DNA from: Prevotella sp.
Lineage (GTDB): Bacteria; Bacteroidota; Bacteroidia; Bacteroidales; Bacteroidaceae
Direction of reading: 5' to 3'
Assembly: GCA_017627765.1 (NCBI GenBank)
Contig: JAGAGD010000022.1
Span: forward strand, 1-52,209
Length of the DNA stretch: 52,209 bases
In this document: piece after piece, positions 35,742 to 52,032 of the stretch
Layout: every line of letters starts with the position of its first letter
Numbering within the stretch: position 1 is the first letter of the stretch
Made by a program: the position numbers and the translations under genes
Notes under the pieces: generated by a model
Database searches by the model: none
Told to the model about the DNA's origin: nothing
Seen by the model: the letters and a program-made list of their open reading frames with translations, nothing else

Positions 35742-37307
35742 TTATATATTTATATCGTATGTTATAACCTTGAGTAAGTTATTATAATTAGTTGATCCTC
35801 CATATGGTGTTCCCGGATCATGTTCCACATTAGAGTCATTTAGTTTGAAAACTCCTGACACGTAATACCCATTACATCTTCCTTTCCATCCAAAATCGCA
35901 ATGAACCATTTTTACGGTCTCAGTCCTATTTGTAGTATTGATAATAGTGGAGCCGAAATAAATATTTGTTGTAACAGTACGTTCCTTTACTTTATATCCA
36001 TCTATATTCCAACAATGACTCTTAAATATATTGATGCCTGGGACAGAATAAATTATTACTGGTTTCCCATTATCAAGCATATTTGTGACCCTGTCAAACT
36101 TATAGCTATAGCTATGGGCATTTGTGAAACCTATATGCCTCATGTACGACGTTGCTTTATGTGGGAATGTAAAAGTTCCGTTATAAAAATACCAGCTGTC
36201 ACAACTACTTCCTACACTTCTTAGAAGATGTGCCGCAGAATTCTTGCCTATGTCAGTTTCAACGCTTTTCTTTAATTCTTTCCAGTCTACCTTATATCCA
36301 TTATACACGAAATTCTTAGGATGCTCAAAATATGTCATAATTTTTGATATCGCCAAAGGGAAACAACCTGCAGGAGCTCTTCTTTTATGTCCAACTAAAA
36401 CATATTTCCTTCTTTTGGGACACAAATCATTGAATGGTGAATTCTGCCTCCATTCTTTAAACTGAGTAAACATTGGCGATACACTTTTTTTGATTTCCCA
36501 TGCCGATACAATATATTTTTTTGTATATGGATTTCCAGTTCCATCGTTCGGGTCATTTTGGAATTCTTCTTGTTCAGTAAACCCTTTTATCTTGTTCATT
36601 GCGTAAGAAACGCACATAGCACTGGTTAAAGCTTCTGGTTCTAAGTTAGACGTCTGATCTTGGGGTATAAGGTTTCCATTTTCATCCTCCTCACCCTCAT
36701 TATCAAAACTATAAAATCCAACCAGAGTGTCTTTTTCCTTGTCGTCATACAAAGTTACAGTGTTTGGGTTCAGAAAGAGTTCATCACCTGTCTCTGGCAT
36801 AGTGAAGAAACCAGGACCTGTTTTTGGATACTCATCTAAAATAATTCTTTCTGAATTCAATAGCTCTAATGCAGAGTAAACGGTAGAGTCAGACAAAGAT
36901 CCTGCGTCGGTTATTGCAATAACATTCTCACCGATTCTCTTATCCGCCGCAAGAATCGCGTAGCCCTGATCATTATCAAAGTTTGCGATATAAACAAGGT
37001 TTTCATCGTCATTACTATTCTCTTGAGAACTGAGGAACATCTTTCCATTATTAATGAGAGATGCTTTATTGCCATTTAATTTAATTGGAATAAGAGATTT
37101 TACCACACGTTTGCTAACTACTCTTGCCGAGGAGTTTGACGATGGTTCATTGATAAACTCATAAAGATAATTTAGTGCACTGTCAACAGGTATACTGTAT
37201 GAATTTTTAGGGAAACTTCCTTCTTGGTCAATATTTGTCAAAACATCATCATCATGACATGACACAATCAATAAGGAAAGTGCAATTGTAAAAAGGATTT
37301 TCTTCAT
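35742..37307 (-). CDS. C10 family (streptopain-like) cysteine protease, lipoprotein
   Basis: The 521 residues start with a lipoprotein signal (LLIVSC, Cys17). Residues 60-135 resemble the C10 propeptide (NLVYIANFDNDQGYAILAAD). The catalytic domain has Cys315 in PAGCFPLAISKIMTYF, His431 in KSHCWNIDGYKV and the region VHCDFGWKGRCNGYY. The usual GCVATA...Q is changed to GCFPLAIS, so it is a divergent member, but Cys and His are kept. A BACON-like lipoprotein gene follows in the same direction. It lies between der and mlaFE and looks lineage-specific. Confidence 0.85.
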   Translation of the reverse strand: MKKILFTIALSLLIVSCHDDDVLTNIDQEGSFPKNSYSIPVDSALNYLYEFINEPSSNSSARVVSKRVVKSLIPIKLNGNKASLINNGKMFLSSQENSNDDENLVYIANFDNDQGYAILAADKRIGENVIAITDAGSLSDSTVYSALELLNSERIILDEYPKTGPGFFTMPETGDELFLNPNTVTLYDDKEKDTLVGFYSFDNEGEEDENGNLIPQDQTSNLEPEALTSAMCVSYAMNKIKGFTEQEEFQNDPNDGTGNPYTKKYIVSAWEIKKSVSPMFTQFKEWRQNSPFNDLCPKRRKYVLVGHKRRAPAGCFPLAISKIMTYFEHPKNFVYNGYKVDWKELKKSVETDIGKNSAAHLLRSVGSSCDSWYFYNGTFTFPHKATSYMRHIGFTNAHSYSYKFDRVTNMLDNGKPVIIYSVPGINIFKSHCWNIDGYKVKERTVTTNIYFGSTIINTTNRTETVKMVHCDFGWKGRCNGYYVSGVFKLNDSNVEHDPGTPYGGSTNYNNLLKVITYDINI

Positions 37308-40638: not shown

Positions 40639-43600
40639 ATGAAGAAAACTACTATTATGTTTGTGCTCTGCCTGATAGCAACTTCTATATGGGCAGCGCC
40701 ACGCAGTCAGCAACAGGCTCTGACTGAGGCTAAGGCATTCCTATCAAAAAAGGGTATAGCCAAAGTAGAAAAAATAAGCATGTCATTTCGTGCGCCAAGA
40801 AAGCAGAAAGCAAGCAATGCTGCAAGCTACTATGTTTTCAATATGGAAGATAACAAAGGCTTCGTTATAGTATCGGGCGACGACAGGATTTCTCCTATTC
40901 TCGGCTATGCTGACAGCGGAAAGTTTGACACCGAAAACATGCCAGAACACATTAAGGCATGGATGGACTCATACACCGACCAACTGCAGATGATAGAGGA
41001 AGGCAAAGCGATGCCACGCTCTCAAAAAACAATGAAGGCAATGAGTATGACAAAACACAACATTGCCCCACTGCTTACCTGCAACTGGAGCCAAGATGAG
41101 CCTTATAGCAATCAGTGTCCTACATATAGCAGACAATCATGCGTTACAGGTTGCGTGGCAACAGCAATGGCTCAGGTGTTATACCATCACCGTGCAAACA
41201 GCGTAAAAGCAACATTGAAAGAAATTCCTGGATATACAACCAGTACCAGACGTTTATCTTTAAAGAGTATTCCAGCCAACTCTCCAATAGACTGGGACAA
41301 CATGGTTGACAATTATACAGGAAATGAAACATCTGCACAAAACAATGCCGTTGCAAGTCTGATGAAATATTGCGGATATTCTGTACAGATGGACTATAAC
41401 TTAGCAAGCAGTGGAGGTTCTGGTGCTATGTCTGAGTTAATACCTGAAGCACTTGTGAACTATTTTGGATACGACAAAGAGACACGTCAGGAAAATCGCT
41501 TAGACTACTCAGCCGACGAATGGGATGACCTTATTTATTGCGAGCTCAGAGACAATCGCCCTGTAATATACGGAGGTGCAGCAGCTGGTGGCGGTCACCA
41601 GTTTGTTATCGACGGCTACGATGTTGACGGACTGTTCCACGTAAACTGGGGATGGGCAGGAAGCTGCAATGGCTATTTCCTGATTTCAGTACTCAATCCT
41701 GACAACAACAGTGGCATTGGTGCTGCTTCTACTTCTGACGGATATTCCATTTCGCAAAGTGCCATTATTGGTGCTCAACCTACAGAAACACCAACAGAGT
41801 ATGAATACCTGAAAAATCTGAATGGTGGTCTTAATTACATTGACGGAAACAATGTATATTACCATTTTTACAACTATAATAATACTACGCTCAACTTAAT
41901 TGTACTACTCATTGCAAAGAATGAGCAGACTGGAGATGAATACGCCATTGCGGGTGTTAACGTAGGTGAACTTGCTTTCTTGTATGGATCAAATAACTAT
42001 CCTTTTGAAATAAAACAAGAAAACCTGACTAAAAGCAACATGCCTGCTGGCATATACTCACTCAAAATTGCAAGCATGCCTAACGATGAAGATTACTACT
42101 ACGACATGAAGCTTGACGTTCTCGACGAAGCTATGCTTGACTATAACGGCAGCAGTTTCGCTCTTTCTATCCGCTATGCAGGAGAAAATCTTGAAACTAC
42201 AGGTCTGACTACAGGAACTATTACAACATCCTCAAGCAGCATGTATAGATCATACAATGTACCTGTAAATATAGATATAAAAAACAACGGCGATAAAGAC
42301 TACTGCGGTCCTATCTATATTTTTGCAAGCACATCTTCTTCAATGGGAGATGCTCTCACTACAACAGATATAGTTGTTAAAAAGCAATCAGCTACTTCTG
42401 CAACATTGACAATTAATGAAAATTCTACTGGCACATACCACGTCTGGATTTCAACTGATGCTTACGGCGGAAATATAATTGGTACATATACCATAAATGT
42501 CAAGCCATCTTCACCTGCCACATCAACCCTCACTTGCAATAACATTAAGGTAAATAACATATATTCAGGCAAAAATGTTTATGGCAATGTTTTGAATGGC
42601 TATTTCACTGTTACAAACACTAAGAGCCAGACTTTCAAAGGAACATTGACTGCAAAATTATTCTATAGCAATTCATATAACGAAACAAGCATAGACGCAA
42701 ACAACATGGTAGTTACAATAAACAGCAATGGCACAGCACAAATTCCATTCTCATTTAAGAACCTTGAATACGGATACAATTATACCTTGCGTTTATATGA
42801 TTCTGAAAACGGAAACGTTGTGCTGGCTGAAGAACCTAATTACAGATGTAATAAAGGAATAGTTGTATTTACAGACAACTCCATTCTCGGATATGCCCCA
42901 ACAACAAGCTTTACAGTTCCTGAGAATGCTTTGGCTGTTGACATGAGTGCAACGACAACTGTCAATACTGTAACTCCAAACAGCAACCCTAACACACTCT
43001 ACTACTTGAGCAACTCTGGCAGCGTGCCTGCTGGAATCAACTCAAACGTAATCAGAAACAACAAGGCTGAAAACATCACACTCAGCGACAATTATGCAAT
43101 GTATGTTCCAACCACCTTCACTGCCGAAAACATAAGTTACAGCCGAAAGATGGAACACTCAACCAACGGCACTGGCGGATGGGAAACTATCGTTCTGCCT
43201 TTCGATGTTGACAAGGTTGTGGTTGCCGAAAGCAATAAGCAGATAGACTGGTTCCACAGCAGAACCGACTCTGACAAAGACTTCTGGGTTAAGTCGTATA
43301 CACAGCAGTCTGACGACGGAACAGTCTACTTCGACTATGCAACTCAGATGGACGCCTATATACCTTATATTATAGCAGTTCCTGGCAACCGATGGGGCGA
43401 GGAGTGGAATCTGCAAGGCAAGACTCTCAACTTCATTGGCGAAGACGCAGTCGTTAATGCTGACACAAGAGCAATAACAACAGCCGACATCTTCGGATTT
43501 GAAGGCATATTCCAGAGCAACAGTCTCAACAACATCTACAATCTTAACGATGCAGGTACCAACTTCGGTCTTACTGCCGACGCAACAGTTCCTGCTTTCC

Positions 43601-43827
43601 GTGCCTACTTCTTCAGCCGACAAGAAGGCAACGGTCCTGCATTTCTGCGCATAGCACAGCAGGGCGACAAGCCAACAGACGACACTACTGGACTAACATT
43701 CCAGATGGCTAAGACGGACAATTCTAGTGTCATTTACGATTTGCAAGGCCGCAGACTTAATATGACATTCGGCAACCTGCCAAAGGGCATATACATCGTT
43801 AACGGAAAGAAGATAGTAAAGAATTAA
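40639..43827 (+). CDS. large secreted C10 family (streptopain-like) cysteine protease
   Basis: 1062 residues with a signal peptide (MKKTTIMFVLCLIATSIWAA). The propeptide region (about 25-120) contains YYVFNMEDNKGFVIVSGDDR. The catalytic domain has Cys172 in CVTGCVATAMAQVLYHHR and His320 in GGGHQFVIDGYDVDG, then FHVNWGWAGSCNGYF. About 650 residues of beta-sandwich-like sequence follow, of unknown role. The end reads VIYDLQGRRL...LPKGIYIVNGKKIVKN, a cell-surface sorting-type tail (type IX secretion is plausible). A 56-residue peptide is encoded 43 bp downstream. Confidence 0.9.
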   Translation: MKKTTIMFVLCLIATSIWAAPRSQQQALTEAKAFLSKKGIAKVEKISMSFRAPRKQKASNAASYYVFNMEDNKGFVIVSGDDRISPILGYADSGKFDTENMPEHIKAWMDSYTDQLQMIEEGKAMPRSQKTMKAMSMTKHNIAPLLTCNWSQDEPYSNQCPTYSRQSCVTGCVATAMAQVLYHHRANSVKATLKEIPGYTTSTRRLSLKSIPANSPIDWDNMVDNYTGNETSAQNNAVASLMKYCGYSVQMDYNLASSGGSGAMSELIPEALVNYFGYDKETRQENRLDYSADEWDDLIYCELRDNRPVIYGGAAAGGGHQFVIDGYDVDGLFHVNWGWAGSCNGYFLISVLNPDNNSGIGAASTSDGYSISQSAIIGAQPTETPTEYEYLKNLNGGLNYIDGNNVYYHFYNYNNTTLNLIVLLIAKNEQTGDEYAIAGVNVGELAFLYGSNNYPFEIKQENLTKSNMPAGIYSLKIASMPNDEDYYYDMKLDVLDEAMLDYNGSSFALSIRYAGENLETTGLTTGTITTSSSSMYRSYNVPVNIDIKNNGDKDYCGPIYIFASTSSSMGDALTTTDIVVKKQSATSATLTINENSTGTYHVWISTDAYGGNIIGTYTINVKPSSPATSTLTCNNIKVNNIYSGKNVYGNVLNGYFTVTNTKSQTFKGTLTAKLFYSNSYNETSIDANNMVVTINSNGTAQIPFSFKNLEYGYNYTLRLYDSENGNVVLAEEPNYRCNKGIVVFTDNSILGYAPTTSFTVPENALAVDMSATTTVNTVTPNSNPNTLYYLSNSGSVPAGINSNVIRNNKAENITLSDNYAMYVPTTFTAENISYSRKMEHSTNGTGGWETIVLPFDVDKVVVAESNKQIDWFHSRTDSDKDFWVKSYTQQSDDGTVYFDYATQMDAYIPYIIAVPGNRWGEEWNLQGKTLNFIGEDAVVNADTRAITTADIFGFEGIFQSNSLNNIYNLNDAGTNFGLTADATVPAFRAYFFSRQEGNGPAFLRIAQQGDKPTDDTTGLTFQMAKTDNSSVIYDLQGRRLNMTFGNLPKGIYIVNGKKIVKN

Positions 43828-43870: not shown

Positions 43871-44041
43871 ATGAAAACCTATATAAAACCAGCAATTAAA
43901 GTTGTAGATGCAGAAATAGTTTGTCTCGGTCCAGGAGCTAGTGATGCTGGCGACCCGACAGTAGGCGCAAAATCATTCTTTATGGAAATTGACGAAGAAG
44001 ACGAGCCAACATCATCAGACAAATCAGTCTGGGATGACTAA
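43871..44041 (+). CDS. 56-residue acidic peptide, copy 1
   Basis: A 56-codon gene between the C10 protease and a terminator, starting MKTYIKPAIKVVDAEIVCLG, with VGAKSFFMEIDEEDEP in the middle and ending SVWDD. It has no signal peptide or membrane segment. It matches the layout of the peptide at 48283-48453: same length, K at residue 2, AK near residues 32-34, Phe then an acidic run, and W-x-D at 54-56. Both sit just downstream of a large secreted protein with the same C-terminal tail. I recall unnamed Bacteroidota peptides of this kind, but no function; a precursor peptide or export helper is possible. Confidence 0.75.
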   Translation: MKTYIKPAIKVVDAEIVCLGPGASDAGDPTVGAKSFFMEIDEEDEPTSSDKSVWDD

Positions 44042-44051
44042 ATAAGATTAT

Positions 44052-44090
44052 TAAACGCTCAACATAATAAATTCTTATGTTGAGCGTTTA
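44052..44090 (+). terminator. terminator after the acidic peptide gene
   Basis: A perfect 16-bp stem, TAAACGCTCAACATAA (44052-44067) against TTATGTTGAGCGTTTA (44075-44090), 10 bases after the peptide stop. T's after the stem are few (TATTTATAG). It supports the peptide being the last gene of the protease transcript. Confidence 0.8.
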
Positions 44091-44187
44091 TATTTATAGT
44101 GCATTCTATCATCATCAACTTTAATATATATAGAAGATCACAAGAACTTAAGAGCCCGTAAACTCTAAAAAAAACCCACCACCGTCA

Positions 44188-45615
44188 ATGTCATTCACGT
44201 CAATAGCATTCCTTCTGTTTCTGCCTATAGTCTTCGCTGCATATTGGCTGACCAGAAACAGGCTGCAAGTGCAGAATCTTGTCTTGCTATTGGCAAGTTA
44301 TGTTTTCTATGGATGGTGGGACTGGCGCTTTCTCATTCTCATCATCATTACATCGGTCAGCAGCTTTTCAAGCGGACTGCTTATTGAGCGTTTTGAAGGA
44401 GACAGGCGCAAAAGAAGAAAAGTAGTTGCAGCCAACATAATTCTGAATCTTGGCATTTTGGCTGTATTCAAATACTACAACTTCTTTGTTGACACACTCT
44501 GCGAGTTGCTGTCGCCGCTTGGCATAACTCTCGACACCCCCACGCTTAGCCTTATTCTGCCCGTCGGAATAAGTTTCTATACATTCCAGTCACTCTCCTA
44601 CACCATTGATGTTTACCGCAAAAAACTGGATGCCACTAACAATATTGTGGCTTTCTGCGCATTCATCAGTTTCTTTCCCCAACTCGTTGCAGGACCCATT
44701 GAGCGTGCAACAAACCTTCTTCCGCAGATGCTCCGCCAAAGGATTTTCCGATACGACAAGGCGGTTGACGGACTGCGGCAGATGCTATGGGGATTTTTCA
44801 AGAAAATGGTTGTAGCAGACAACTGCGCACTGGCGGTAGACACCATCTGGGGCGACATCTACTCGATGAACGCAACGACAATGATTGCAGGTGCGCTGCT
44901 TTTCACTTTCCAGATTTATTGCGACTTCTCAGGCTATAGCGACATTGCCATAGGAACGGCACGCCTGTTTGGCATCAACCTGATGCAGAACTTCCGAATG
45001 CCTTATTTCTCGCGAAACGTTTCTGAATTCTGGCGACGTTGGCACATCTCGCTCATGACATGGTTTCGCGACTATGTATATATTCCGCTCGGAGGCAGCC
45101 GAAACGGCAGGTGGACAACCATACGCAACACGCTGATTGTGTTCACGCTGAGCGGACTGTGGCACGGAGCCAACTGGACATACGTCTGCTGGGGACTCTA
45201 TCATGCCGTTCTCTTCGTTCCGCTACTTTTCTTTGCCAACAGCAGGAAATTTGCCGACGAGCCTAAGATTTGCCTGCACGACCTGTGGCGCATATTGCTC
45301 ACCTTCAGCCTTGTAGTTGTAGGATGGATAATATTCCGCGCACCATCTATGACCGATGCGATAGCCTACGTAAGCCACACCATGAGCAGCTTCCACGACA
45401 TTGCCACATTGCAGCACGGCAAACTGCCCCTTCTCTATTGCCTGATTATCGTAGCAGCAGAGTGGATTCAGCGCAGAAAGGCTCATGCACTTTGCCTCGA
45501 CAGTGGTTTTGCCGCAAGAAGCGCTACTGTGCGCTGGGCTGTCTACCTGCTTGTTGCAATGTCAATAATAGTTCTTCGCGGCGACAGCCAGACTTTCATT
45601 TATTTTCAATTCTAA
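44188..45615 (+). CDS. MBOAT family O-acyltransferase (AlgI/PatA-like)
   Basis: Membrane-bound O-acyltransferases of this branch pass acetyl groups from the cytoplasm to the outer face for polysaccharide or peptidoglycan O-acetylation. The 475 residues are mostly hydrophobic helices. Motifs include SFYTFQSLSYTIDVYR, QLVAGPIERA, CDFSGYSDIAIGTARLFGI, FWRRWHISLMTWFRDYVYIP and the catalytic His region TLSGLWHGANWTYVCWGLYH. The partner gene starts 9 bp downstream. The substrate is unknown. Confidence 0.9.
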   Translation: MSFTSIAFLLFLPIVFAAYWLTRNRLQVQNLVLLLASYVFYGWWDWRFLILIIITSVSSFSSGLLIERFEGDRRKRRKVVAANIILNLGILAVFKYYNFFVDTLCELLSPLGITLDTPTLSLILPVGISFYTFQSLSYTIDVYRKKLDATNNIVAFCAFISFFPQLVAGPIERATNLLPQMLRQRIFRYDKAVDGLRQMLWGFFKKMVVADNCALAVDTIWGDIYSMNATTMIAGALLFTFQIYCDFSGYSDIAIGTARLFGINLMQNFRMPYFSRNVSEFWRRWHISLMTWFRDYVYIPLGGSRNGRWTTIRNTLIVFTLSGLWHGANWTYVCWGLYHAVLFVPLLFFANSRKFADEPKICLHDLWRILLTFSLVVVGWIIFRAPSMTDAIAYVSHTMSSFHDIATLQHGKLPLLYCLIIVAAEWIQRRKAHALCLDSGFAARSATVRWAVYLLVAMSIIVLRGDSQTFIYFQF

Positions 45616-45624
45616 AAGCCTATT

Positions 45625-46533
45625 ATGAAACATTTTCTGCTTCGCTCCGCTATTTTCCTGCTGTTCCTGCTCGTCTGTGCGGCTGCCTTAGAATTGTTTG
45701 TGAGGTCGCTGCCAAACTCCTATAAACTGAAAAACGAGTGGATGGAGAATAATTCCAACTCGGTTGAGTGCATTGTCTTGGGCAACTCTCATGCGCTATT
45801 CAGTTTCCGCCCCGACAGCATGGGCAATAACATCTTCAATCTCGCAAATGTCTCACAGACTCTCGACTACGACTGCGAACTGCTGAAACACTATGCGACC
45901 CGATGCAGGAATCTGAAGAGCGTTATTCTGACGGTTGACAACTCTAACCTGTTTGATGCCTCGCTCGACGAGATGGGACCACACCGCGCCGCTTTCTACA
46001 AAATATATATGGGCATCGACCGCCACTCGGTTTTCTCGCGCTATGGACTCGAACTGATGAACGCTGCAACCGTTCAGGCAAAACTGCAAAAACATTTCTC
46101 TGGAAACGACCTTGAGGTGGATTCGCTCGGCTGGGGATTTACCTATAAAGACAACTTGCGCGACAGCGAGAATCTCAGCATTGAGCAGGTAAAGTCAAGA
46201 ATTGAAGGACACACCTGCACCAACTGGAGCAATGCCATGAGCAACCAGAAGAGTGTTATGGCTATTGCACGCTACTGCAAGGAAAACGGAATACGGCTGG
46301 TGCTGATAGAGACTCCAACGAGCAGGGCTTACAACAGGCTTATCCCTAAGCGACAACTCGACTTCATAAGTCAGACACTCAGTCTTTGCCAAGAAAAATA
46401 TGGTGCAATAACACTCGACCTGCACGACGACGAAAGATTTGGCGACAACGACTTTTTCGATGCCGACCACATCACCGACCTTGCAGCAACACGACTGAGC
46501 AGGATTGCTGCCAGTGTGCTGGCAGACAAATAG
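45625..46533 (+). CDS. SGNH-type hydrolase/acyltransferase partner of the MBOAT protein
   Basis: 302 residues with an N-terminal membrane anchor (FLLFLLVCAAALELFVRSLP) and a periplasmic domain. CIVLGNSHALFSF gives the nucleophile Ser55 (GNSH in place of GDS), and FDADHITDLAA gives the Asp279-x-x-His282 pair, the triad of the SGNH/AlgJ-PatB type. In such pairs the MBOAT protein brings acetyl groups across and the SGNH protein transfers them to the sugar. The 9-bp gap to the MBOAT gene supports a two-gene unit. The glycan target is not evident. Confidence 0.75.
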   Translation: MKHFLLRSAIFLLFLLVCAAALELFVRSLPNSYKLKNEWMENNSNSVECIVLGNSHALFSFRPDSMGNNIFNLANVSQTLDYDCELLKHYATRCRNLKSVILTVDNSNLFDASLDEMGPHRAAFYKIYMGIDRHSVFSRYGLELMNAATVQAKLQKHFSGNDLEVDSLGWGFTYKDNLRDSENLSIEQVKSRIEGHTCTNWSNAMSNQKSVMAIARYCKENGIRLVLIETPTSRAYNRLIPKRQLDFISQTLSLCQEKYGAITLDLHDDERFGDNDFFDADHITDLAATRLSRIAASVLADK

Positions 46534-46608
46534 CAGCGCAAACAAACATCGTGCCATAAATTTTATTTTTATGTATTTTTAGCATGTTGGGGGTGCAATT
46601 TTTGTCAA

Positions 46609-46925
46609 CTAAAATTCTAATTCTAGAAAAGTTTGGCACGGCTGAAATGCAAAAAAGCATTTAGTTGTTAATCAATCGGCTTAAACTTTGTGAAAGGACA
46701 TGATGAGCAAAATTGTGAAAGGTGTCCTTTCGCGATGTCAAACGTGGCATATGACCATGCGATATGTGGCATATCGCAGTGCCAAAGGTGCTCTTTCGCA
46801 CTGCGAAAGGACACCTTTCACTTTTTCAGAGGTTATGAGTTGTAAGAGCAAAACTTGCAAGTCGCTGTCCAGCAAGTATTTACACAAAATTCAGCCAAAC
46901 CGCTAAATACTTGCATATTTACAGA
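46609..46925 (+). repeat. dispersed palindrome-rich repeat of about 320 bp, copy B
   Basis: Matches the reverse complement of 29944-30269 along its length. Here the inner inverted repeat is perfect over 19 bp: GTGAAAGGTGTCCTTTCGC (46715-46733) and its complement (46803-46821), enclosing smaller palindromes (GCGATATGTGGCATATCGC). A second stem near the end pairs GCAAGTATTTA (46872-46882) with TAAATACTTGC (46904-46914). It fills most of the gap between the SGNH gene and the broken His-rich gene (46534-47128), where no gene is seen. Confidence 0.8.
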
Positions 46926-47128
46926 AAAAATTTTCCAAGTCCAGAAAAACGCGAGTATTTTGACATTCCCTTTAAGCAAAAACAAACTCTATTAACATTT
47001 TTTATCCGCCTTTCTTTCATTATCTTCATTCCAACACACCAGTCTATGAAAACCATGATATAAAATTAGGAAAACAATCTGATTATTTCAGAAAATATGT
47101 ATCTTTACACACACTAACAAACAAAACG

Positions 47129-47611
47129 ATGAAGAAAACGGTATCAATATTTTTCATAATACTTGCCAATATACTTATATTGGCTCATGCTGTGATACCG
47201 CATCATCATCACAACAAAATGTTTGTGGCAATAGTCAATGTGCTTGACGACGAAGCACAAGACCTTTTCAACCACGAACATTGACATTCACATCATCACG
47301 ACGGCAACACATATCATCACAACAGCGGCTCACATCACCATGACACCAATAAAGAAGAGTGTCTGATGAACGAAGCTGAGGTTGCTGCCGCTCTGAAAAT
47401 ACAGACCGACGACGGAGATGGATGGTTTTCCAACCTATTGTCAGCAACAGACAATGGCGGAACATTTCCACTTGCCATTACTGGTCTTTCTGAACTAACG
47501 CTTACACCACTTTTCAGAGAAGTGAGTGTCAGGCAACTGCCATATGTTGCCTGCGGGCATACGCATTTCGTAGCCCGCGCCAAAGGTCTCCGTGCCCCTC
47601 CTGCTTGCTGA
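47129..47611 (+). pseudogene. His-rich DUF6769-like exported protein, broken by an in-frame TGA
   Basis: From the ATG at 47129 the frame encodes a signal peptide (MKKTVSIFFIILANILILAH), AVIPHHHHNK and more. It hits TGA at 47282, but goes on in the same frame with HSHHHDGNTYHHNSGSHHHD and runs to the stop at 47609-47611, ending GLRAPPAC. Start and end both match a family of small His-rich, likely metal-binding proteins of Bacteroidota ('..HHHH..' and '..LRAPP.C'). So this is one gene of 160 codons with a nonsense change at codon 52. A sequencing error is the other possibility. Confidence 0.7.
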
Positions 47612-47690
47612 TTTTTTTATCATGTAGAAACGTCGCATACAGCCTCATCACAATAGGCAGGTATGCCAATTATTTACTCTCGCAAGCATA

Positions 47691-48155
47691 TTGCTATCGC
47701 TAGACACAGCAAATGAAAATAGTTTGATGTTTGAAGATGCCCTATCTTTTTCACGCGGTTCACTATTCGTTCTTGGTGCAACTATATGTTGGGGATTTGA
47801 AAACAACTGCACACGCCAGATTGCAAACCGAGACCCCATGGAGATTGTAACAATAAAGGAATTCGGATCTGGTTTAGGAGCGTTGGCAATTGCTTTTGCT
47901 ATTGGCGAACAACTACCAGACATAAAAAACATCTTCATCATAGTTATGCTTGGATATATTGCCTACGGATTGAGCATCTATAGCTACACTTATGCACAAC
48001 GCACTATAGGTGCAGCAAGGACTAGTACATACTATGCACTTGCGCCTTTCATCGGTGCACTTCTATCTATCATCTTGCTTAGAGAACCTGTTACTATGAC
48101 TTTTGTTGCAGCATCAGTCATAATGGCAATAGGTTGCTGGATTGCGACAAAATAG
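47691..48155 (+). pseudogene. C-terminal half of an EamA/DMT family transporter
   Basis: The frame encodes one EamA repeat with five membrane segments: GSLFVLGATICWGFENNCTR, EFGSGLGALAIAFAIGEQL, NIFIIVMLGYIAYGLSIYSY, RTSTYYALAPFIGALLSIIL and FVAASVIMAIGCWIATK. Full DMT transporters have two such repeats in about 290 residues; only the second is present. In-frame sequence upstream (about 47670 on) may be the last bit of the linker before a stop at 47625. There is no good start codon, so it is most likely a truncated gene. Confidence 0.75.
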
Positions 48156-48180
48156 AACGTACTTTAGACATAAAAAAATA

Positions 48181-48207
48181 GAGGCTCTGATTTATGGTCA
48201 GAGCCTC
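48181..48207 (-). terminator. terminator between the transporter remnant and the second peptide gene
   Basis: Arms GAGGCTCTGA (48181-48190) and TCAGAGCCTC (48198-48207) with a 7-base loop. On the minus strand it is followed by TATTTTTTTA, so it ends transcription from the acidic peptide gene at 48283. Confidence 0.85.
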
Positions 48208-48282
48208 CTTCTACTTAAATTCATCCCACTCTAAATAAGTGTGGTTACATTCTTCATAAAGACACCATTACAGGTGTTTTCC

Positions 48283-48453
48283 TTAATCGCCCCAATGAGG
48301 AAATATTTCGTAATCTTTTTCCTCGTCTTCCTCTTCTTCATCAAAGACAGTCTGCTTTGCATCTACCCATTCACAGCTATGTGATGCAAGATAGCGCATA
48401 GGTGTCTCTATATTGATTCTTTCGGTCTGAGGGGCTAAATATATCTTCTTCAT
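48283..48453 (-). CDS. 56-residue acidic peptide, copy 2
   Basis: A 56-codon gene 18 bp after the end of the 1186-residue secreted protein, with a clear GGGAGGA eight bases before its ATG, rare in this phylum. It starts MKKIYLAPQTERINIETPMR, carries VDAKQTVFDEEEEDEEKDYE and ends FPHWGD. It has no signal peptide. The layout matches copy 1 at 43871-44041 although overall identity is low. It is followed by a terminator, so the large gene and the peptide form one transcript. Confidence 0.75.
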   Translation of the reverse strand: MKKIYLAPQTERINIETPMRYLASHSCEWVDAKQTVFDEEEEDEEKDYEIFPHWGD

Positions 48454-48471: not shown

Positions 48472-51400
48472 TTACTTCACAATAAGTTTCGTTCCATTTA
48501 CTATATATATTCCTGCTGGAAGTGTAACTGAGAGAGTATCGCCTGCACCGATGCTGATTCTATTTACAAGTACACCGTTCAGGTTTCTTATATCTACTTC
48601 CTGCGAAATTGATGATGCCATTGTCAGCATACCAGTTTCTGTACTGATCACCAAGTCTGGTACTTCGTCAGCATTCACAATGCCTGTAGGGTCTGTTTCG
48701 CCTTCGCCATCACCGAAGATAACTCCAAAGGCTGGAAGCAAACCAACTAAAGGACCATTTCCTTTATAATATGTGCGGAAAGGAGTCAGCTTAGCATACT
48801 CACGCCATGAGTCAAGTTCATCTGAACATACGAAACGGTCGCGAGAGTAATAATAATAGTGGTGGCCTATATGGAGTTTCTTTCCTGCGTATGAGCCATA
48901 GGCTGTAAATCTAAAGTTCTTTCCATTAAATGTGCCAAAAGACTCACCACCTTTGAAAGAATACTTTTCAGTATTGTCCATGCCTGTTGTTGCCTTGATT
49001 AGTGAACCTGATTGTGTTGCAACAAAGATTATTTTATCATCTCCGCTATTATAACTCTCTTTTTTTACCCTTATTAAATAAGGTGTGTTAGCCTCTGTCT
49101 TTGTTACATTTGTGACAGATGGGAATAATACATACGAAAGATTCTCTTCTCCATCTACTGGGGTAGATGAAAGACATTCTTCTGATTTCATCTGATGCAC
49201 AGAGAATGGAATTGTACCGTCTTTGTTAACATGGTTACCATTTCCATCAAGACTAATCTCGAATGGCAGAATAATTGAAGCCCTTGCTACCTTTCCATTC
49301 TTGTCTATTGTAACATTACGAGTATAAGTACAAGTATTAGCCGCATCTATCTGAATGTCATAAGGTGCATAGAATGGTTTCTGGTCTTGCAATACGAAGT
49401 TTGCAGCACCATGGAACAATCCGCCTTCTGTCTTGTAAGCATAGTTGTCATAATGTGTTGTTGAAGCGTGTGGCAAATAAACGAGCGAATTTACTCCCAA
49501 CTCGTTGCGGATCGCATCTATACCTCCATTAGCAACATCTTTTTCTTCGACAACTGAAAGCAAGTTGCTTCCGTCCACATATAGAATTTGTGAAGCATTG
49601 TTTATTCCTTCTGCGTGATCAGATACAGCTTTGTCTATAAGATTAAGAATCTGATTAACTGTAAGATAACCATATTCGCCTGATTCTCCGCCCGATTCTG
49701 TTGTCTTAAGCTTTATACCATACTGGGCATCTGTGCATTGTTGACCATCAGAACCTATGAATAATGTTTCACCTGTATCATAAACCTTAACTAATTCATA
49801 TACTGGAGAATAACTCTTTTTATGCAATTCAATTATCATTTCATAGAATGCATAGCTACGATGCTCTGTTGCGGTAGCAGGAGAAATATTGTAGCGTGTT
49901 TCATCGCAAGTGAAAAGATAGTTAGTTGTGAAGTCACCATCGTCCATTTTTACTTCGTGGAAATTATTCTCGTCATATTTTGTAAGATTAAATGGATATT
50001 CTATAAGATAACCGCTGCTACTACTCAACTGGCTTGCATTGTTAAATATGAATTTTTCAGTTCCAGCCTTAGTTGTTATAACCTTATTCTCATATCCAAA
50101 ATCAGGGTCGTATGTAGTTGAATAAAGGTCTTTGTTATTATTCCAATAATCTGACATTACAAAACTATAGCGCGAATGGAGTTCTGGATTGTTATTGGCA
50201 TTCCAATATGTATTGTCACCATAAGAACTGTATAAGCGCTCAAAGGTAAATTTACAAGGTGCGCTGAAGTCTTCTGGAACATAATATACAAATTTACCGC
50301 CTCGAACAGAGAAATCACTTGCAGTAAACTGCTGAGATAAGCGTCTGCCATTACCTTCTGACTCCTGGCACACAATTGAAAGATTGTCGATGTATGGATC
50401 AAGATATTGCAAAGTCAATGTTCCCATAATTAGTCCAATTCCCTCTACTCCAATCTTTACAGCATCATTGTTCAATCCATTTATCTCAATAGAACCTTCT
50501 GAATTTGAATTATTAACTGTAATTATTTGTGGATTCTCACCACTCTTGTCGTAAACTTTAAACACAAAATCACCTGTATTTATAGGAGTGGTCCCAAAAT
50601 CATTATAAACTGCTGTTGTATGAGAATTATTATTTGTTACAGCACCATATCTAGAAGAATTAAAACGATCACGAACACGTATATAATAAGATGAATCTGT
50701 TTTACGGCGCACATACTCACCATTAAGTTCAAACGTATACTTACGATCAGTAGGTTTTGCTGGTTGGGTACTTATTCTACCATCATCTCCATAAACCAAA
50801 TAATTTCCATTACTTGATATGTACCCTTCTTCATCTATTTCCCAAGTCACTGGGGTAGTCGTATATTTTCCAGAAGTATTTAGATAATAATCATCAAATA
50901 AATTTCTAAACTTTATTTGTATCTTACGATTTGTCGATAATTGCTTGGTATAGTCAAACTTTGCAGAAACTATACGATAACCTATAGGAACTTTTGTTTT
51001 TTCAGTATTAGGCAATTCGATATATGTAGGTGTTTCAATATAGTAAATCTGTTCTCTATCTGTACGACCTAACTTAAAATAGCTTCCAACTGAAGAAATT
51101 GTTCCAGACTTATAATCTACAACCTTGCCACTACGTCCATCATAATTGGTTCCATCAACAACAGACTCTTTTTCAAATAACACTAAATTTCCTGGCAAAT
51201 CTTTAATATTGCTTGAATAATAACTAAACCTAGTAACACCTTGATAATTATTAGGTCCAATTTCTCCATAATCCACATAACTTGTAGGGAATGGAATATC
51301 TACAGCACTTACAGGCGTTCCAATTGCTGTCGCTGGCGTTATAGGACTATAATCAGTTTCTGCTGTAAAGTATAACTGAACACTATGAAGGGTAATTATT

Positions 51401-52032
51401 GCACGCTTATCACTTGGACCTTCCATTTTAAAATACAATATATTACCCATGTCAGACTCTGAATAACTACTACGGGCAATTTTCTTCCTCGCACTAATGC
51501 TAGTATTGTAAGAGACAGTTGCATTATTAGTTCCTACAAAATTAAAAGAAGAATTAGTTTCACCAAAAGTAGTTTCGCCATCTATTGAGAAATTTTCAGT
51601 TCCAAACCTATTTTTATCTTTTGAGAAAACTATCTCGTATCCAGTAAATCTATATCCACTTGGCAAACTTATTGTAATATAATTAACATTTGCACCTTCA
51701 ACCTGTCCTTTACCAATCAATATAACATCTTCATCTTCTAAGGGCAAAAGGTTATTAGCAGGATTCGCCAACAAACCATTATCAGTCAAATCTTTGTTAT
51801 CCGAAACTGTCATGGTAAGGTTTAATTGCTCATGTCTCCATGTCGCATAACCACCAAATTTAAAGAATGTATCGATAACTCCTCCATCCTTTATTGCAGC
51901 AATTGTTGCACCTGTCGAAGGACGAATAGTAACACTTTGTGCTTTAACTTCAACCGTTGAGAAGAAAAGCAAGGCAATAAGCACAATAAGAGCACTCATA
52001 GTCCATCGGGAATATTTTTTTAAATTCTTCAT
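48472..52032 (-). CDS. large secreted surface protein of unknown function
   Basis: 1186 residues with a signal peptide (SALIVLIALLFFSTVEVKAQ, cleaved near residue 32). The body is rich in Asn, Ser, Thr and Tyr with many short beta-like stretches, as in surface proteins of Prevotella; I recognise no enzyme motif. The end (ISTETGMLTMASSISQEVDI, then LPAGIYIVNGTKLIVK) matches the tail of the secreted C10 protease at 40639-43827 and should direct surface sorting. It is followed after 18 bp by the second 56-residue acidic peptide. The promoter was not found in the 177 bases left before the window edge. Confidence 0.75.
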   Translation of the reverse strand: MKNLKKYSRWTMSALIVLIALLFFSTVEVKAQSVTIRPSTGATIAAIKDGGVIDTFFKFGGYATWRHEQLNLTMTVSDNKDLTDNGLLANPANNLLPLEDEDVILIGKGQVEGANVNYITISLPSGYRFTGYEIVFSKDKNRFGTENFSIDGETTFGETNSSFNFVGTNNATVSYNTSISARKKIARSSYSESDMGNILYFKMEGPSDKRAIITLHSVQLYFTAETDYSPITPATAIGTPVSAVDIPFPTSYVDYGEIGPNNYQGVTRFSYYSSNIKDLPGNLVLFEKESVVDGTNYDGRSGKVVDYKSGTISSVGSYFKLGRTDREQIYYIETPTYIELPNTEKTKVPIGYRIVSAKFDYTKQLSTNRKIQIKFRNLFDDYYLNTSGKYTTTPVTWEIDEEGYISSNGNYLVYGDDGRISTQPAKPTDRKYTFELNGEYVRRKTDSSYYIRVRDRFNSSRYGAVTNNNSHTTAVYNDFGTTPINTGDFVFKVYDKSGENPQIITVNNSNSEGSIEINGLNNDAVKIGVEGIGLIMGTLTLQYLDPYIDNLSIVCQESEGNGRRLSQQFTASDFSVRGGKFVYYVPEDFSAPCKFTFERLYSSYGDNTYWNANNNPELHSRYSFVMSDYWNNNKDLYSTTYDPDFGYENKVITTKAGTEKFIFNNASQLSSSSGYLIEYPFNLTKYDENNFHEVKMDDGDFTTNYLFTCDETRYNISPATATEHRSYAFYEMIIELHKKSYSPVYELVKVYDTGETLFIGSDGQQCTDAQYGIKLKTTESGGESGEYGYLTVNQILNLIDKAVSDHAEGINNASQILYVDGSNLLSVVEEKDVANGGIDAIRNELGVNSLVYLPHASTTHYDNYAYKTEGGLFHGAANFVLQDQKPFYAPYDIQIDAANTCTYTRNVTIDKNGKVARASIILPFEISLDGNGNHVNKDGTIPFSVHQMKSEECLSSTPVDGEENLSYVLFPSVTNVTKTEANTPYLIRVKKESYNSGDDKIIFVATQSGSLIKATTGMDNTEKYSFKGGESFGTFNGKNFRFTAYGSYAGKKLHIGHHYYYYSRDRFVCSDELDSWREYAKLTPFRTYYKGNGPLVGLLPAFGVIFGDGEGETDPTGIVNADEVPDLVISTETGMLTMASSISQEVDIRNLNGVLVNRISIGAGDTLSVTLPAGIYIVNGTKLIVK

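What the first reader, a model, noticed from the sequence alone, without database searches (positions are those of the whole stretch)
43871..48453. Two unlinked 56-residue acidic peptides with one layout, each just downstream of a large surface protein
The genes at 43871-44041 (plus) and 48283-48453 (minus) both encode exactly 56 residues. Shared points: MK at the start, AK near residues 32-34, a Phe followed by a run of Asp/Glu, and W-x-D as the last three residues. Each follows a large secreted protein (gap 43 and 18 bp) and is closed by its own terminator. The third candidate locus, a C10 protease that is a lipoprotein without the sorting tail (35742-37307), has no such peptide. This suggests the peptide goes with tail-bearing proteins. 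It could be a modified precursor peptide, an export helper that stays in the cytoplasm, or a small regulator. I recall similar unnamed peptides in Bacteroidota, but no described role.
Basis: partly seen in the sequence, partly recalled or inferred. Interest (0 to 1): 0.8.

Follow-up and report, generated by a model that had tools for sequence, protein, structure and literature searches.

The report
Phosphopeptide precursors paired with secreted proteins
Two tiny genes in a Prevotella-like bacterium look like raw material for a kinase-modified peptide, each beside a secreted surface protein, which would tie a newly recognised peptide-modifying system to how these bacteria build their surface.

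Summary
Both 56-residue genes are real and belong to one large unnamed family. Their equal length is chance. The shared signature is Y-x-x-P near the start, a serine about 20 residues on, then an acidic, usually Trp-bearing tail.

Most sampled members sit right behind a gene ending in the GIYIVNGKK tail (44 of 57, against 7 of 128 other ORFs nearby). But only 10 of 51 tail genes examined in this genome have one, so the tail is not what determines the peptide.

Across genomes the peptide follows an operon: HPr-kinase-like protein, signal-peptidase-like protease, PqqD/RRE. In 60 same-genus genomes the kinase reaches 290 bits in 50 of 52 with peptides and 0 of 8 without; on a tree that is three joint losses. 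In two distant genomes a YxxP peptide lies within such a cluster.

The parts match the LPP RiPPs described in Bacillota in 2026 (PMC13381572), whose RRE binds YxxP and whose kinase phosphorylates Ser3. Best reading: LPP-like precursors, scattered in trans and paired with surface proteins. The operon was not found in the window's own 88%-complete genome; modification and function are inferred.

The parts
43871..44041 (+). YxxP peptide gene 1 (56 aa), proposed LPP-like precursor; Tyr4 and Pro7 at 43880-43891
   Evidence: translation; held-out profile score 29.5 bits
43940..43942 (+). Ser24 of peptide 1, proposed phosphorylation site (position 21 from the Tyr)
   Evidence: alignment by motif; site inferred from LPP Ser3 (PMC13381572)
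44052..44090 (+). terminator-like hairpin behind peptide 1
40639..43827 (+). C10 protease with I69 prodomain and C-terminal tail, gene upstream of peptide 1
   Evidence: Pfam; tail match at 43726-43821
48283..48453 (-). YxxP peptide gene 2 (56 aa), proposed LPP-like precursor; Tyr5 and Pro8 at 48441-48430
   Evidence: translation; held-out profile score 25.5 bits
48382..48384 (-). Ser24 of peptide 2, proposed phosphorylation site (position 20 from the Tyr)
   Evidence: alignment by motif; site inferred from LPP Ser3
48180..48208 (-). terminator-like hairpin, 75 bp behind peptide 2
48472..52032 (-). 1186-aa secreted protein with tail, gene upstream of peptide 2
   Evidence: translation; tail match at 48475-48600; no Pfam family above cut-off
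35742..37307 (-). C10-type lipoprotein without tail and without peptide (contrast)
   Evidence: Pfam, window scan

Best explanation
The two peptides are precursors of an LPP-like RiPP system (linear polyphosphorylated peptides). A stand-alone PqqD/RRE protein binds the Y-x-x-P leader, an HPr-kinase-like enzyme phosphorylates the conserved Ser about 20 residues on, and a signal-peptidase-like Ser-His protease removes the leader, leaving an acidic core that an ABC exporter may secrete. Unlike LPP in Bacillota, the precursor genes are scattered (up to about 20 per genome), most of those sampled right behind a gene for a tail-bearing secreted protein, and one operon serves them in trans. Shown here: the family, its linkage to tail genes, its co-occurrence with the operon, a YxxP peptide inside the cluster in two genomes, and RRE and protease residues that match the characterised system. 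Inferred: binding, phosphorylation, cleavage, export, service in trans, and any joint role with the neighbouring surface protein.
For: Same-genus set, 60 genomes, none of which gave rows to the kinase profile: kinase at least 290 bits in 50 of 52 with peptides and 0 of 8 without; with any hit at E<=1e-5, 50 of 52 and 2 of 8. On a SprA tree of 56 of these 60, peptides are missing in three separate clades and the kinase goes with them, none going the other way. Family set, 80 of 101 genomes: 46 of 53 with and 3 of 27 without peptides reach 290 bits; among SprA-positive genomes 42 of 44 and 3 of 10, among SprA-negative 4 of 8 and 0 of 17; once the kinase is given, SprA adds nothing. Cis clusters: L361 peptide-kinase-protease-PqqD-NTP_transf_5 on one strand; L238 PqqD, NTP_transf_5, kinase, capsule export genes, peptide, protease, ABC transporter. 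PqqD profile's best solved structures are lasso RREs TfuB1, PbaB1 and TbiB1. The Asn and Asp that hold Pro and Tyr in LppB are kept in 60 of 60 PqqD proteins, and the protease's Ser, His and Asp and the kinase's Walker A motif in 60 of 60 loci. Leader spacing: Ser at 20-21 in most peptides here, at 19 in the LPP consensus YxxPxVLxHQxIxFETxxS.
Against: Neither PqqD nor the kinase was found in the window's own genome (88% complete), nor in G244, which has 5 peptides. G212, G231 and G233 have the kinase and no detected peptide, as do G148 and G156 at 264 and 251 bits in the order set. In the family set G254 and G277 (no kinase hit) and G205, G220, G241 (243-260 bits) each have one peptide. The 290-bit line was drawn after the family set was seen. 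The genus result rests on three loss events, sign test p 0.25. Fifteen of the 80 family genomes gave rows to the kinase profile. Only 2 of 20 operon regions read contain a peptide by profile. No NTP transferase gene was noted beside the trio in most of the genus-type regions. The Ser offset differs by 1-2 from LPP and the window's P0001 has G-P-G-A-S instead of the usual M-I-A-x-S. No biochemical data.
Confidence: 0.74

Rival explanations
1. A cytoplasmic chaperone or export helper for type IX cargo: the peptide binds its upstream protein or the secretion machinery and is not processed.
For: 44 of 57 sampled peptides follow a tail gene with a median gap of 32 bp in those 44; peptide core and cargo similarity go together.
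Against: 10 of 51 tail genes examined in the own genome have a peptide. G010 has no SprA hit but has peptide matches. Several members neighbour lipoprotein-like genes. Given the kinase, SprA adds nothing. The YxxP motif has no obvious use in this reading.
Confidence: 0.1
2. Precursors of another RRE-dependent product (for example a lasso-type or other modified peptide) in which the kinase is a side activity or modifies something else.
For: PqqD matches lasso RREs best, and the YxxPx[I/L/V] start fits lasso leaders as described in PMC13381572.
Against: No cyclase or B2 protease gene was noticed beside the trio in the 20 regions read, though I ran no dedicated search for them. A signal-peptidase-like protease with an HprK-like kinase is the LPP set.
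Confidence: 0.1
3. A small regulator or 3'-end RNA/stability element that is translated by the way.
For: Short genes in operon-like position, often followed by hairpins (shown for the window pair only).
Against: Conservation lies in the protein motif, and co-occurrence is with peptide-maturation genes.
Confidence: 0.04
4. Chance likeness of two unrelated small ORFs.
For: No Pfam or NCBIfam family at cut-off; the two share about 20% identity in the alignment.
Against: Held-out scores of 29.5 and 25.5 bits against at most 6.6 for shuffles; profile matches in 52 of 60 same-genus genomes and 74 of 101 family genomes, both profiles containing the pair.
Confidence: 0.02

Closest known systems
Linear polyphosphorylated peptides (LPP), Bacillota (PMC13381572, sections 6-8 and 10-12 read)
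   Same: HprK-like kinase, discrete RRE, signal-peptidase-like protease, in some loci NTP transferase and ABC exporter; precursors with conserved YxxP N-terminus, a Ser about 19-21 residues on and variable C-terminus; in L238 also beside capsule genes.
   Different: Bacteroidota; in the genus-type genomes precursors are many, mostly outside the operon and mostly beside tail-bearing secreted proteins; acidic, Trp-bearing cores; no modification shown.
Lasso peptides, paeninodin type (with HprK-like kinase)
   Same: RRE of the TfuB1/PbaB1/TbiB1 type and Y/W-x-x-P leader.
   Different: No macrolactam cyclase or B2 protease was noticed in the regions read (not searched for as such).
HprK-related kinase A system (NCBIfam TIGR04352 / TIGR04353)
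   Same: An HprK-like kinase with a PqqD protein.
   Different: Operon proteins of L289 score 20.2 and 18.4 bits against cut-offs of 200 and 35.
Type IX secretion cargo with C-terminal sorting tail
   Same: The upstream genes end in a tail of this look; SprA is in 59 of 60 same-genus genomes.
   Different: The peptides themselves show no tail and, by eye, no signal peptide; the two window tail proteins match no Pfam or NCBIfam sorting model at E<=1.

Membership tests
LPP RiPP family | HprK-like kinase, discrete RRE and signal-peptidase-like protease encoded together | tested here: met
   all three in 60 of 60 best kinase loci and in 18 of 20 PqqD regions read
LPP RiPP family | that machinery present in the window's own genome | tested here: not met
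   no PqqD and no kinase in G000, 88% complete; five nearest genomes on the tree have the kinase
LPP RiPP family | precursor with YxxPx[hydrophobic] leader and conserved Ser about 19 after it | tested here: met
   Ser at 20-21 in most rather than 19
LPP RiPP family | precursor gene inside the cluster | tested here: inconclusive
   met in L361 and L238, not in 18 of 20 operon regions read
LPP RiPP family | RRE residues Asn33 and Asp70 of LppB | tested here: met
   60 of 60; positions matched by my count through PbaB1 Gly42/Gln79
LPP RiPP family | NTP transferase and MsbA-like exporter in the cluster | tested here: inconclusive
   NTP_transf_5 in L361 and L238, ABC transporter in L279 and L238; not seen in many other regions
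LPP RiPP family | polyphosphorylated Ser and leader cleavage | not testable with these tools
   needs mass spectrometry
Lasso peptides | macrolactam cyclase and B2 protease | not tested
   none noticed in the 20 regions; no search made
Type IX cargo (the upstream proteins) | match to a published sorting-domain model; machinery present | tested here: inconclusive
   no model match at E<=1; SprA present in G000

The most novel reading that the evidence does not exclude
Bacteroidota run a trans-acting phospho-RiPP system in which one kinase-protease-RRE operon matures many dispersed precursors, each dedicated to the surface protein encoded beside it, so that a modified peptide is a normal, cargo-specific partner (anchor, activator, protector or spacer) of tail-bearing secreted proteins and of neighbouring surface lipoproteins.
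Probability: 0.3. Interest if true: 0.92.

Novelty: new variant of a known kind. Interest (0 to 1): 0.8.

Why it matters
A family of small unannotated genes, found in 74 of 101 sampled genomes of this bacterial family and up to about 20 per genome, would get a biochemical identity, and an orphan kinase-protease-RRE operon would get its substrates. It would take LPP beyond Bacillota, show a RiPP system whose precursors are scattered and paired with secreted proteins, and offer a direct test: mass steps of +80 Da on one serine.

Tried and rejected
Equal length as a sign of kinship: rejected. Type IX machinery as the determinant: rejected, because SprA is in 59 of 60 same-genus genomes including all 8 without peptides and adds nothing once the kinase is given. 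PqqD by the Pfam model alone: too broad, 72 of 80 genomes. Cargo type as the link: diverse (LRR_5 in 5, CHB_HEX_C_1 and Fn3_assoc in 4, Big_2 in 3, GH95 in 1 of 52 upstream proteins scanned, most without a listed family). Named relatives through the C10 protease: 7 loci, all assemblies labelled Prevotella, Prevotellaceae, Bacteroidaceae, Bacteroidales or Clostridiales; not used further. Eight loci gave no YxxP ORF and were not used in counts. Chance matches of the motif filter (L094; L440) were not counted as peptides. In one search the place C28:17319 was addressed wrongly by my script and is left out, so 51 of 52 tail places count; five of 50 loci had been skipped by a too strict pattern and were examined. 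Three of the 60 sampled places had no upstream ORF because of a contig end and were dropped. The 60 places were consecutive in rank in the capped list, own-genome rows skipped, not a random sample. The kinase order test covered 80 of 119 genomes: 4 of 5 with a peptide hit and 11 of 75 others have a kinase match at E<=1e-5. The tree leaves out G010, G017, G018 and G060 (no or fragmentary SprA) and adds four outgroup genomes. Structure prediction was not used: its stated rule names other sources than genome-fetch loci. Literature: nine searches, of which one search returned nothing and several listed only part of the papers found; no listed paper reported LPP, a PqqD/HprK operon or these peptides in Bacteroidota or beside type IX cargo. 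PMC10352776 and PMC12710340 were seen as passages only.
Full report
OBSERVATION. The ORFs at 43871-44041 (+) and 48283-48453 (-) are present and encode 56 residues each. The gaps to the upstream genes are 43 and 18 bp. The upstream genes are a C10 protease with an I69 prodomain and a 1186-aa protein without a Pfam family above its cut-off. Both end in the tail, and no other ORF of at least 100 codons in the window does. Terminator-like hairpins lie at 44052-44090 and, 75 bp behind the second gene, at 48180-48208. Neither peptide reaches a Pfam or NCBIfam cut-off. The points of the observation hold; the equal length is chance.

A FAMILY. Each peptide, searched over 60 genomes (own plus 59 relatives), gave weak hits. 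Many of these are short ORFs with M-K-x-x-Y-x-x-P and an acidic C-terminus right behind a tail-bearing gene. A profile of 19 of them matches in 52 of 60 same-genus genomes, up to 22 times per genome (E<=0.1). A profile of 33 matches in 74 of 101 genomes of the family, 16 of 22 genera, but in only 6 of 119 genomes sampled across the order, own included (E<=0.01). With both window peptides left out, a profile of 149 relatives gives them 29.5 and 25.5 bits; the best of 500 shuffles each is 6.6 and 6.5. The relatives were partly found with these two as seeds.

ANATOMY. Over 142 non-redundant members, picked by the motif and counted from the Tyr: position 6 mostly I/T/M/L/V, then alternating hydrophobic and acidic residues, then [M/I/L]-[I/L]-[A/C]-x-Ser, with Ser at 20 in 65% and at 21 in 28% of peptides, against 0-15% elsewhere. 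After it comes a variable acidic part (27% D/E, 7% K/R); 124 of 142 have a Trp in the last 15 residues. In the window peptides the marks are Y4/P7/Ser24 and Y5/P8/Ser24.

LINK TO TAIL GENES. I took 60 places consecutive in rank from the capped family listing. For 57 an upstream ORF of at least 90 aa was available; 44 carry the tail at E<1e-3, against 7 of 128 other ORFs in the same regions. By eye several of the other 13 end in other tail-like sequences (L187, L199, L222, L224, L230). Some members instead lie just upstream of lipoprotein-like genes (L190, L204, L231, L238, L250, L252). In the other direction, the tail profile finds 52 places at E<1e-4 in the own genome; of 51 examined, 10 have a peptide behind them. 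Of the 10 own-genome peptides found by profile at E<=0.01, 9 follow a tail gene and one (C69) does not. Similar cargo goes with similar peptide core (Mantel r 0.46, p 0.0005, 47 gene pairs, paralogues included), so peptide and cargo tend to be inherited together.

A PARTNER OPERON. Y-x-x-P is the leader motif of lasso-type RREs (recalled, then read), so I looked for PqqD proteins: 72 of 80 family genomes have one, but not the own genome. Of 20 such regions read, 18 hold a trio: a ~295-aa HPr-kinase-like protein, a ~160-aa S24/S26-like protease and an 89-aa PqqD, in some with an ABC transporter. Two of the 20 also hold a YxxP peptide by profile. A kinase profile from 15 of these regions was then run on three sets.

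CO-OCCURRENCE. Same genus, 60 genomes, none with rows in the profile: at least 290 bits in 50 of 52 with peptides and 0 of 8 without; counting any hit at E<=1e-5, 50 of 52 and 2 of 8. The exceptions are G000, the window's genome, 88% complete, and G032, with one weak peptide match. SprA is in 59 of the 60, all 8 peptide-free ones included, and missing in G010, which has peptides and kinase. A SprA tree shows three peptide-free clades inside the genus. On independent pairs the kinase went with the peptide in 2.9 of 3 and never the other way: only three events, sign test p 0.25. Family, 80 of 101 genomes, 15 of which gave profile rows: 46 of 53 with peptides and 3 of 27 without reach 290 bits; within SprA-positive genomes 42 of 44 and 3 of 10; once the kinase is given, SprA has no effect. 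The 290-bit line was drawn after seeing this set. Order, 80 of 119 genomes: 4 of 5 with peptide hits and 11 of 75 others have a match; G126 (10 peptides) has the top score, 294 bits, G054 206, G178 129, G154 59, G134 none, while G148 and G156 reach 264 and 251 without detected peptides. G134's peptide hit lies in a 338-aa frame and is probably false.

CIS CLUSTERS. In L361 (genome G054, another family of the order) a YxxP peptide (profile E 2.6e-4) is followed on the same strand, 38 bp on, by kinase, protease, PqqD and an NTP_transf_5 protein. In L238 (G205, another genus, no SprA hit) PqqD, NTP_transf_5 and kinase stand among glycosyltransferase and capsule export genes, followed by a YxxP peptide, a lipoprotein-like gene, an OmpA-domain gene, the protease and an ABC transporter.

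RESIDUES. The PqqD profile's three best solved structures are lasso RREs: TfuB1 (6jx3), PbaB1 (9x90) and TbiB1 (5v1u). By my count on the printed alignment the profile's Asn35 falls on PbaB1 Gly42 and Asp73 on Gln79, the places where LppB has Asn33 and Asp70, which fix the Pro kink and the Tyr. Both are kept in 60 of 60 PqqD proteins; the protease's Ser, His and Asp and the kinase's Walker A motif are kept in 60 of 60 loci. These 60 are the best-scoring loci of two searches.

MECHANISM. By analogy with LPP (sections 6-8 and 10-12 of PMC13381572): the RRE binds YxxP, the kinase phosphorylates the conserved Ser (Ser3 of the LPP core), the protease cuts two residues before it, and the core may be exported. 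For the Bacteroidota peptides each of these steps is inferred. What the product does beside a secreted protein is open.

WHAT TO CALL IT. The peptides would work like LPP precursors. I do not file the window's pair as proven members, because the machinery was not found in their own genome. The five nearest genomes on the tree (G019, G084, G009, G074, G066) have the kinase, so an assembly gap or a recent loss are both possible. The type IX name of the tail is by resemblance: no published model matched the two window proteins, though SprA is present.

NOVELTY. The authors call LPP restricted to Bacillota. My nine literature searches listed no paper on Bacteroidota LPP or on RiPP precursors paired with type IX cargo; preprints and most subscription journals are not held, and long listings were cut. 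I rate it a new variant of a known kind.

Noticed in passing
G010 (same-genus genome); kinase at G010:C1:71235-72110: This genome has no SprA hit yet has peptide matches and the kinase. The neighbours of its peptides were not seen and could show what the peptide does without type IX secretion.
   Followed up: no
40639-43827 and 48472-52032, and 52 tail places of the own genome: Dozens of proteins end in this tail, yet the two window examples match no Pfam or NCBIfam sorting-domain model at E<=1: published models seem to miss this form.
   Followed up: partly
L238:2057-13942: In a genome without SprA hit the PqqD, NTP transferase, kinase, peptide, protease and ABC transporter lie within one capsule-type locus together with a large lipoprotein-like gene and an OmpA-domain gene.
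   Followed up: partly
L288:2054-6542: Two tail-bearing genes follow directly behind the kinase-protease-PqqD operon.
   Followed up: no
window 47129-47611: A short His-rich ORF (51 aa) ends at a stop inside a longer His-rich stretch, and another ORF begins downstream; it looks like an interrupted gene.
   Followed up: no
window 46690-46840: Intergenic stretch with repeated and palindromic copies of a motif like GGTGTCCTTTCGC / GTGGCATATCG.
   Followed up: no
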